Under the pieces are notes generated by a model that was not told the origin of the DNA, did no database searches, and saw nothing but the letters and a program-made list of their open reading frames with translations. The translations under genes and the position numbers were made by a program. 34,179 bases of DNA. It comes from an uncultured Clostridia bacterium. Its GTDB lineage: Bacteria > Bacillota > Clostridia > Oscillospirales > Acutalibacteraceae. Positions 1,526 to 31,820 of the stretch are shown here, piece after piece. Where the stretch lies: contig CANPZK010000007.1 in NCBI GenBank assembly GCA_947588875.1, positions 1-34,179 of the forward strand, in the 5' to 3' direction. How positions within the stretch are numbered: the first letter of the stretch is position 1; the number at the start of each line of letters is the position of its first letter.

Positions 1526-1666
1526 GCGGGGGCGGCGGCGACCCAAATTCCCGCCTCCGGCGGGAATTTGGAAAAACACGGCGGGAGGGGGCGCTGCCCG
1601 CGTTAAAAAAATCCTGCGCCGTGTTTTTTGGCGCGGCTTCGCCGCGCCGGTCGCCGCCGCCCCCGC
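1526..1666 (+). repeat. Cloverleaf intergenic element, copy E1
   Basis: Perfect 18-bp closing stem 1526-1543/1649-1666; hairpin A 1543-1555/1559-1571 (13 bp); hairpin B 1572-1583/1617-1628 (12 bp); hairpin C 1630-1637/1641-1648 (8 bp). Same architecture as 25674-25818 and 31630-31774. Confidence 0.85.
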
Positions 1667-1694
1667 CAAAAATCCTGCCGCGAGAGGAGGAGTA

Positions 1695-2690
1695 ATAATA
1701 AAAAAGATAAAGCGAAATTTGCTTTTCATAGCCATAATCGCAGCGGCATCCGCCTTATGCTTCGCCGCCCTCTTTTACAACAACGGCATAATCGACAGAG
1801 AAAAGCCCTATACCTCGTCGAGGGTTTACGAGGATATAAAACTCCTTGCGGAAAAATACCCCGATTTGATAAAGCTCGGCTCTATCGGAAGCAGCGTAAG
1901 GGGCAAAAATATCCCGCTGATAATTCTCGGCAAAGGCGGCAAAAAGGCGTGCGTCATCGCGGGACTTCACGCGAGGGAGCATATAACGGTGAGCTTCACT
2001 CTGCTCTGCGTCGAGGAGTATTGTCGGGCGTACAGCTCCGACAGCGGACTGTACGGAAAATATAATATGAGGGAGCTGTTAAACGAATACACGCTTTACA
2101 TAGCGCCCGCCTGCAATCCCGACGGTATGGACATCTGCAACAGCGGTGAAGAGCCTAAGACCAAGGCGGCGGGCGGCTTGGACAGAGAGCATTATAAAAA
2201 CAACTCAAACGACGTGAACCTTAACGCGAACTTCCCGTTTTACTGGAGCGATATATCCGATAAAAGTCGGCAAAAGGGGCCAAGAGCGGCGAGCGAGGCG
2301 GAAACGAGGAATATTATGAAATTGTGCAGAGAGAACAGCTTTGAGTGGCTGCTTGATATGCATATGGCGGGGAACTGTATTTTTTGGAGAGACGCGGCGA
2401 ACGGCGAGGTCGAGGGCGACAACGAGCTTGCGGCGGCTCTCGAATCGGAGTGCAGGTATTACCGATGTCCTGTCACAAGCGACGTAAACGACTATGGCGG
2501 AGGGCTTGAAAACTGGTTCAGAGGTGAGATGAAAAGGCCTGCCGTTTGCGTGGAGCTTGTGGTAAAGAGCGAAGCGACCGCAGGAATGTCGATTGCCGAT
2601 TATAATAAAAATTTTGATAAGGCTCTGAACTGGGAGAAAACTCGGTTCACCTTTGCCGCGGCTATGGCGGCGCATGAAATTAAAATTTAA
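1695..2690 (+). CDS. M14-family zinc carboxypeptidase with N-terminal membrane/signal segment (start codon uncertain)
   Basis: KKACVIAGLHAREHITV (HxxE), APACNPDGMD, DVNLNANFPFYW, LLDMHMAG are M14 motifs; N-terminus KKIKRNLLFIAIIAAASALCFAALF is signal-like. SD AGGAGG at 1685-1690 is followed by GTA ATA ATA AAA. The ORF stays open upstream to GTG 1464 through element E1. Confidence 0.8.
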   Translation: MIKKIKRNLLFIAIIAAASALCFAALFYNNGIIDREKPYTSSRVYEDIKLLAEKYPDLIKLGSIGSSVRGKNIPLIILGKGGKKACVIAGLHAREHITVSFTLLCVEEYCRAYSSDSGLYGKYNMRELLNEYTLYIAPACNPDGMDICNSGEEPKTKAAGGLDREHYKNNSNDVNLNANFPFYWSDISDKSRQKGPRAASEAETRNIMKLCRENSFEWLLDMHMAGNCIFWRDAANGEVEGDNELAAALESECRYYRCPVTSDVNDYGGGLENWFRGEMKRPAVCVELVVKSEATAGMSIADYNKNFDKALNWEKTRFTFAAAMAAHEIKI

Positions 2691-25630: not shown

Positions 25631-25862
25631 GCGCCGCAGCAGCCCGTTTTAGCTTAGCGACGGCGACAGAGGATTCGGGGCGGCGACCTCGGCGCGGCAG
25701 CTGCCGCGCCGGAAAAACGCGGCGGCGCAGATCCCCTGACAGGGGCAGGCTTGCCGTAGCGCCGCGTTTTTCGTTAAATTTCCGCCGGAGGCGGAAATTT
25801 AACGGTCGCCGCCCCGAAAGCCGGTCGCTCAGCCCAATGCGGCATAGAGCAGACTGCGGCGC
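25631..25862. repeat. Nested inverted-repeat shell around cloverleaf copy E2
   Basis: Outer GCGCCGCAG (25631-25639)/CTGCGGCGC (25854-25862), perfect; middle GCTTAGCGACGGC (25652-25664)/GCCGGTCGCTCAGC (25820-25833), near-perfect. Confidence 0.6.
25674..25818 (-). repeat. Cloverleaf intergenic element, copy E2 (inverted relative to E1)
   Basis: Perfect 15-bp closing stem TTCGGGGCGGCGACC (25674-25688)/GGTCGCCGCCCCGAA (25804-25818); hairpin C perfect palindrome 25690-25711; hairpin B 25712-25724/25760-25772; hairpin A 25773-25786/25790-25803. Confidence 0.87.
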
Positions 25863-31581: not shown

Positions 31582-31820
31582 GCGAGCTGTCGCGCGGCTC
31601 GTTTTTACGGTGTGCGTGCGTCAGGGTACGGTTCGGGCGGCGACCCGCGCGGCTGCGCCGCGCGAAAAGCGGCGGCGGGGAGAGCTGCCCGAACAGAGTA
31701 CAGTTCCTGCCCCGCCGCGCTTTTGCGCGCCATTCCGCCCGCAGGGCGGAATGGCGCCGGTCGCCGCCCGAACCCCTCGCCGCCCGCAGCAACCTTGCCG
31801 AGAATACAGCGACAGCTCGC
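31582..31820. repeat. Outer inverted repeat enclosing cloverleaf copy E3
   Basis: GCGAGCTGTCGC (31582-31593) and its perfect complement GCGACAGCTCGC (31809-31820). Confidence 0.65.
31630..31774 (-). repeat. Cloverleaf intergenic element, copy E3 (inverted relative to E1)
   Basis: Perfect 16-bp closing stem GGTTCGGGCGGCGACC (31630-31645)/GGTCGCCGCCCGAACC (31759-31774); hairpin C 31646-31653/31657-31664; hairpin B 31665-31680/31710-31724 (one bulge); hairpin A 31727-31740/31744-31757. Confidence 0.86.

What the first reader, a model, noticed from the sequence alone, without database searches (positions are those of the whole stretch)
1526..1666. Family of cloverleaf-folding intergenic elements: copy E1
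Seen directly: 141 bp close into a four-way junction with almost no unpaired bases. Closing stem GCGGGGGCGGCGGCGACC/GGTCGCCGCCGCCCCCGC is 18 bp perfect. Hairpin A is CCAAATTCCCGCC-TCC-GGCGGGAATTTGG, hairpin B AAAAACACGGCG...CGCCGTGTTTTT, hairpin C GGCGCGGC-TTC-GCCGCGCC. Two further copies at 25674 and 31630 share the closing-stem sequence (GGGCGGCGACC), arm order and length (141/145/145 bp), while arm sequences differ with compensation. Inference: either a non-autonomous mobile element that moves as folded ssDNA (comparable in principle to REP/RAYT or AAV-ITR-like folds) or a structured RNA. I do not recognise it as a named family.
Basis: partly seen in the sequence, partly recalled or inferred. 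Interest (0 to 1): 0.85.

Follow-up and report, generated by a model that had tools for sequence, protein, structure and literature searches.

The report
Cloverleaf DNA repeats with self-rewriting arms
A gut Clostridia genome carries about 200 short non-coding DNA repeats between genes, each able to fold into a four-armed shape, and the arms keep changing sequence while staying perfectly self-complementary, apparently through DNA-copying events and not because they encode a folded RNA.

Summary
In detail: E1 (1526-1666) and its relatives E2 and E3 fold as described. They belong to a very large, genus-restricted family. The pattern GGCGACC-N(88-118)-GGTCGCC hits 135 places in this 2.0-Mb genome and 102 in a related species, with 0 for the reversed control. 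There is no Rfam, plasmid or phage match.

A cloverleaf (GGGCGGCGACC closing stem, three hairpins) sits inside an outer 8-9 bp inverted repeat (GCTGYCGC) spanning about 226 bp, without target-site duplication, usually just after a stop codon. E2 and E3 sites are empty in other congeners; E1 is absent from two relatives.

Pairing is kept at DNA level: 35 G.T versus 48 A.C mismatches against 8,117 Watson-Crick pairs, no strand bias, and among 36 orthologous pairs, side arms show 20 single and 21 double changes, 20 of them pair-preserving. One locus shared with a third species has rewritten arms.

Best reading: immobile remnants of a non-autonomous (MITE/REPIN-like) element whose arms evolve by hairpin template switching or conversion. 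The structured-RNA reading is disfavoured; REP/RAYT membership was tested and not met.

The parts
1526..1543 (.). E1 closing stem, left arm (18 bp, contains conserved GGCGGCGACC)
1544..1570 (.). E1 hairpin A (CAAATTCCCGCC-TCC-GGCGGGAATTTG)
1571..1629 (.). E1 middle arm (AAAAACACGGCG ... CGCCGTGTTTTT, variable tip)
1630..1648 (.). E1 hairpin C (GGCGCGGC-TTC-GCCGCGCC)
1649..1666 (.). E1 closing stem, right arm; E1 has no recognisable outer repeat
25631..25639 (.). E2 outer inverted repeat, left (GCGCCGCAG, a variant of the usual GCTGYCGC)
25674..25818 (.). E2 cloverleaf (closing stem 25674-25688/25804-25818, hairpin C 25690-25711, middle arm 25712-25772, hairpin A 25773-25803)
25854..25862 (.). 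E2 outer inverted repeat, right (CTGCGGCGC)
31582..31593 (.). E3 outer inverted repeat, left (GCGAGCTGTCGC)
31630..31774 (.). E3 cloverleaf (closing stem 31630-31645/31759-31774, hairpin C 31646-31664, middle arm about 31665-31724, hairpin A 31727-31757)
31809..31820 (.). E3 outer inverted repeat, right (GCGACAGCTCGC)

Best explanation
E1, E2 and E3 are copies of a genus-restricted, non-coding interspersed repeat of the MITE/REPIN kind, without its own gene. The full unit is about 226 bp: an outer 8-9 bp inverted repeat (GCTGYCGC), two roughly 45-bp spacers, and an inner four-way cloverleaf closed by GGGCGGCGACC/GGTCGCCGCCC with three hairpins. Copies spread before the two closest species split, landing mostly just downstream of stop codons, by a mobiliser not identified here (inferred). 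They have since stayed in place. What keeps the fold is DNA-level: when an arm changes, both strands of the hairpin change together, in blocks. The most likely process is replication template switching inside the hairpin, with conversion from other copies as a possible contributor (inferred). The fold therefore persists and covaries without an RNA function being required. Shown: anatomy, copy number, distribution, site absences, concerted Watson-Crick-preserving changes, absence of wobble tolerance. Inferred: past mobility, template switching as the agent.
For: About 200 intergenic copies (76 of 80 intergenic). Outer repeats with a sharp boundary and left-right identity at the T/C position in 83 of 83 elements. 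Congeners lack the E2 and E3 insertions, and G004 lacks E1. 36 of 37 tested loci are shared between the two close species and 33 of 33 in the reverse direction, so spread is old. Stem mismatches: G.T 35, A.C 48, WC 8,117, against 27 G.T and 0 A.C in 17 tRNA genes read from the same DNA. Side arms of orthologues: 636 pairs, 20 single and 21 double changes, 20 doubles WC to WC, about 1.5 doubles expected under independence; WC doubles over all regions are 22 transversion-type and 11 transition-type, often in runs of 2-4 neighbouring pairs. Many changed arms are unique in the sampled set. A G000/G004 orthologue pair keeps the frame and pairing with rewritten arms. Template switching producing multi-base compensatory changes is documented (PMC8794818; PMC8604942).
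Against: No transposase was linked to the repeats, no target-site duplication was found, and no insertion polymorphism exists between the close species. Conversion from paralogous copies was not separated from local template switching: 6 of 30 loop changes are exact inversions, but in C arms that is what resampling the family's own loops would give (expected fraction 0.26). Conserved stem lengths and the GGCGACC motif could also mean selection for a protein-bound DNA cruciform.
Confidence: 0.62

Rival explanations
1. A structured RNA (3'UTR element, riboregulator or non-coding RNA family) whose fold is selected.
For: Strong covariation on a 50-copy alignment: covariation score 0.160 against 0.054 in shuffles, 19 pairs with two-sided changes; location downstream of stop codons, probably transcribed.
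Against: G.T pairs are no commoner than A.C (35 vs 48), unlike tRNAs (27 vs 0). No orientation preference relative to transcription (33 vs 29). WC double changes are mostly transversion-type (22 vs 11). No Rfam match in the window.
Confidence: 0.1
2. A DNA cruciform or hairpin that is a selected binding site for a host protein (nucleoid protein, resolvase, transposase or segregation factor), with selection rather than mutation bias maintaining pairing.
For: The junction sequence GGCGACC is invariant or nearly so while arms vary; three arms and stem lengths are kept; 36 of 37 loci are retained between species.
Against: More double than single changes at about 7% flank divergence, in blocks, points to concerted events and not sequential selected mutations. 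No partner protein known. The invariance of GGCGACC is partly ascertainment, since elements were detected by it.
Confidence: 0.2
3. Portable bidirectional transcription terminators: the middle arm AAAAACGCGGCGG...CCGCCGCGTTTTT is a GC stem flanked by A and T runs on both strands.
For: A-run/T-run geometry in most copies; median 77-84 bp after an upstream stop codon and depletion between divergent genes (8 of 111 vs 69 of 371 gaps of at least 100 bp, Fisher p = 0.00013).
Against: E2 lies between genes that are only tens of bases apart in two relatives, where a terminator would be disruptive, and the E3 locus appears to keep a separate hairpin plus T-run downstream. A short-hairpin subfamily has no T run. 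The outer repeat and side hairpins are unexplained.
Confidence: 0.15
4. A true REP/REPIN family moved by a RAYT (TnpA_REP) transposase.
For: Two inverted half-units, each with a hairpin, around a variable centre; about 200 intergenic copies; the same bias to tandem and convergent intergenic regions downstream of genes as reported for REPs (PMC3733652).
Against: No RAYT: the single Y1 hit in G000 is an IS200-like 172-aa protein without neighbouring elements; none found in G005. No GTAG or CGTC tag was recognised. Copies are far more diverged than in active REP families.
Confidence: 0.08

Closest known systems
REP / REPIN elements with RAYT transposases (GTAG and CGTC families, PMC3733652)
   Same: High-copy intergenic palindromes downstream of genes; two inverted halves that fold into one larger structure
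   Different: No RAYT, no GTAG/CGTC tag recognised; 226-bp nested architecture with three hairpins and an outer repeat; arm sequences not conserved between copies
Bacterial MITEs such as RUP, ERIC/IRU, Correia/NEMIS (PMC2229807)
   Same: About 100-250 bp, terminal inverted repeats, no coding capacity, around 100-200 intergenic copies
   Different: No target-site duplication and no related IS found; copies share frame and pairing more than sequence; cloverleaf interior
Mobile GC clusters of yeast mitochondria (PMC4478555) and double-hairpin elements of fungal mitochondria (cited in PMC5910586)
   Same: GC-rich hairpin elements in intergenic DNA, many copies, fast evolution, thought to be mobile
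   Different: Different genome type; 42 bp for the GC42 cluster versus 226 bp here; no cloverleaf of this kind reported in the passages read
Template-switch (quasipalindrome) mutation at hairpins (PMC8794818, PMC8604942)
   Same: Multi-base compensatory changes and spacer or loop inversion, giving perfect stems without stepwise G-U intermediates
   Different: Described for RNA genes and scattered inverted repeats; here seen across a whole repeat family at orthologous loci
AAV-type inverted terminal repeats
   Same: Stem with hairpin arms at a junction; inner part found in either orientation relative to the flanks
   Different: Three arms, not two; chromosomal, intergenic, no replication gene found

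Membership tests
REP/REPIN-RAYT | RAYT (Y1, TnpA_REP) gene in the genome, usually flanked by the repeats | tested here: not met
   PF01797: one hit in G000 (IS200-like, no GGCGACC within the locus), none in G005; genomes 91% and 87% complete
REP/REPIN-RAYT | GTAG or CGTC unpaired tag at the foot of the hairpin | tested here: not met
   by inspection the foot of the hairpins is GGCGACC/GGTCGCC and the outer repeat GCTGYCGC; no systematic tag scan was run
REP/REPIN-RAYT | High-copy, intergenic, mostly downstream of genes | tested here: met
MITE | Terminal inverted repeats with a defined boundary | tested here: met
   8-9 bp outer repeat, complementarity at chance from position -2 outwards, 83 elements; a variant repeat of at least 8 bp in 24 of 79 others against 4% for mismatched partners
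MITE | Target-site duplication | tested here: not met
   0 of 83 with 5 bp or more, no excess at 2-4 bp; some transposases make none
MITE | Parent transposase with matching ends | tested here: inconclusive
   only Y1 and IS110 families were searched; other transposases not examined
MITE | Filled and empty orthologous sites | tested here: met
   E2 site empty in G002 and G004, E3 in G004, E1 absent in G004
Structured RNA family | Stems tolerate G-U more than A-C | tested here: not met
   35 vs 48 in 171 elements; tRNA control 27 vs 0
Structured RNA family | Match to a described family | tested here: not met
   Rfam 15, no gathering-score hit in the window
Template-switch evolution | Concerted multi-base Watson-Crick-preserving changes | tested here: met
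Template-switch evolution | Loop inversion in excess of the pool | tested here: inconclusive
   6 of 30 loop changes are exact inversions; in C arms this matches resampling from the family

The most novel reading that the evidence does not exclude
A previously undescribed class of mobile DNA whose identity lies in a folded four-way junction rather than in sequence: an unknown enzyme recognises the GGCGACC junction and outer repeat, inserts the unit after stop codons without target-site duplication, and the arms are free to be rewritten as long as they pair.
Probability: 0.15. Interest if true: 0.85.

Novelty: new variant of a known kind. Interest (0 to 1): 0.62.

Why it matters
The family is a natural data set of about 200 hairpin-bearing loci per genome, many shared between species at about 7% divergence, in which both sides of a stem change together as often as one side alone. 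That makes the proposal that replication template switching creates and maintains perfect hairpins directly testable. It also warns that strong covariation, the usual proof of a functional RNA fold, can arise at DNA level with no RNA involved; the G.T against A.C balance tells the two apart.

Tried and rejected
Rfam scan of the window: nothing. tRNA-like origin: ARAGORN finds none in the window. RAYT: rejected. IS110 as mobiliser: no hit in G000 or G005. Plasmid and phage collections: no match. Viral contigs and non-Clostridial genome hits of the pattern (Rhizobium, Streptomyces, Nocardioides and others) do not fold as the cloverleaf where checked and look like chance hits. E1 absent in G005 at 95% flank identity first looked like a clean empty site, but G005 keeps the left half-stem GGGGGCGGCG, so a GCG-microhomology deletion is more likely. 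Left-right identity of the outer-repeat T/C base was first read as compensation; orthologues never switch type, so it may mark two subfamilies. Loop inversions alone do not prove template switching. A first gene-context run was discarded because spurious ORFs run through the stop-poor hairpins; it was redone with a codon-usage filter. Two parser or index errors and partial failures were rerun.

Full report
Observation. E1 (1526-1666) is a real four-way fold: an 18-bp perfect closing stem, hairpin A, a middle arm and hairpin C. E2 and E3 share the frame but lie in the opposite orientation. The pattern GGCGACC-N(88-118)-GGTCGCC occurs 135 times in the host genome G000 and never in the reversed control. 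In 412 kb of sampled G000 DNA 47 elements were found, in 320 kb of G005 37, and none in shuffled or reversed sequence. Stretches were partly chosen around hits; counting only the large contigs C1-C5 gives about 200 copies per genome.

Distribution. Among 300 genomes of the same family only G000 (122-124), G005 (93) and G004 (2-4) carry the pattern with GGGCGG; two other genomes have single hits that do not look like the element. Two MAGs from different assemblies share orthologous copies, so this is not an assembly artefact. There is no match in plasmid or phage collections and none in Rfam for the window.

Anatomy. Many copies carry an outer inverted repeat GCTGYCGC about 50 bp outside GGCGACC on both sides, giving a full unit of 218-258 bp, mostly 225-228. 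In 83 elements the two sides always agree at the T/C position (43 T, 40 C, 0 mixed), and complementarity falls to chance two bases further out. No target-site duplication is seen. Of 79 elements without that sequence, 24 have another inverted repeat of at least 8 bp, mostly at about the same distance, against 4% for mismatched partners; E2 is one of these with GCGCCGCAG. E1 is an inner cloverleaf without the outer repeat. The spacers are of two types; which side arm lies next to which type is not fixed.

Context. 76 of 80 elements are intergenic by a codon-usage gene call. In the larger sample 82 lie between co-directional genes, 21 between convergent and 8 between divergent genes, a depletion of divergent regions (p = 0.00013); 69 of 82 lie nearer the upstream stop codon, and the A arm comes first in transcription in 33 and second in 29. 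Gene calls are approximate. At the E2 and E3 loci, congeners lack the insertion: the flanking genes are nearly adjacent in G002 and G004 (E2), and G000 carries about 300 extra bases after the stop codon (E3 versus G004). G004 has no trace of E1; G005 keeps only the left half-stem. In the other direction, 36 of 37 G000 loci and 33 of 33 G005 loci checked share the element, so there was no detectable transposition since the two species split.

Evolution of the arms. On 171 elements the stems hold 8,117 Watson-Crick pairs, 35 G.T and 48 A.C mismatches. In 17 tRNA genes from the same DNA the counts are 27 G.T and 0 A.C (ARAGORN itself admits G-U, so this control is lenient). Covariation is strong. 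In 36 orthologous pairs the side arms show 20 one-sided and 21 two-sided changes in 636 pairs, 20 of the latter keeping Watson-Crick pairing, where independence predicts about 1.5 double changes in total. Over all regions, Watson-Crick doubles are 22 transversion-type and 11 transition-type, often in runs. The closing stem shows no change, but detection required GGCGACC with at most one mismatch, so this is partly ascertainment. At one locus shared by G000 and G004 the frame and pairing are kept while the arms differ; in the in-register first arm 4 of 5 changed pairs are full replacements (the other two arms have small indels that inflate their counts). The E2 orthologue in G005 shows a one-sided block change, a possible intermediate.

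Mechanism. Template switching within hairpins is known to make multi-base compensatory changes and to invert loops (PMC8794818; PMC8604942). It fits the block-wise changes, the lack of wobble and the lack of strand bias. Conversion from other copies remains possible: some changed arms exist elsewhere in the sampled family, many do not, and the 6 exact loop inversions in 30 changed loops are not above the pool expectation in C arms. How the family spread is inferred only from outer repeats, copy number and empty sites.

Comparison. It works like a MITE/REPIN-type interspersed repeat, but RAYT membership was tested and not met, and no IS parent was found among the two families searched. Literature searches in the held library found no description of a cloverleaf repeat of this type; subscription papers are not covered. 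Verdict: a new variant of a known kind, with an unusually clear DNA-level covariation signal.

Noticed in passing
L173:210-350: An apparent internal-deletion derivative: both GCTGTCGC-type outer ends and one GGTCGCCGCCC remain around a shortened interior.
   Followed up: no
G000 contig C138 (L070:1417-1935): The only Y1 transposase of the host is an IS200-like protein, nearly identical to one in G004, with a toxin-antitoxin-like gene pair and fragments resembling a type I restriction specificity gene nearby (assignments by eye).
   Followed up: partly
L062:2648-2814 and L066:9873-9995: Variants with closing stem GGCGCCC/GGGCGCC, and L050:1250-1368 with GGCGGCC/GGCCGCC: the junction pair itself has covarying alternatives.
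   Followed up: no
G000 contig C9:32742-32858: A short-hairpin element whose reverse strand shows a second GGGGCGGCGACC inside the match, suggesting overlapping or nested copies.
   Followed up: no
window 1690-2690: The M14 carboxypeptidase gene next to E1 has a ribosome-binding-like AGGAGG but no obvious ATG start in either species; the listed ORF start runs back through E1.
   Followed up: no
L063:306-408 and L094:9736-9838: A short-hairpin subfamily with three perfect hairpins and no A/T runs in the middle arm, shared at one locus by G000 and G004.
   Followed up: partly
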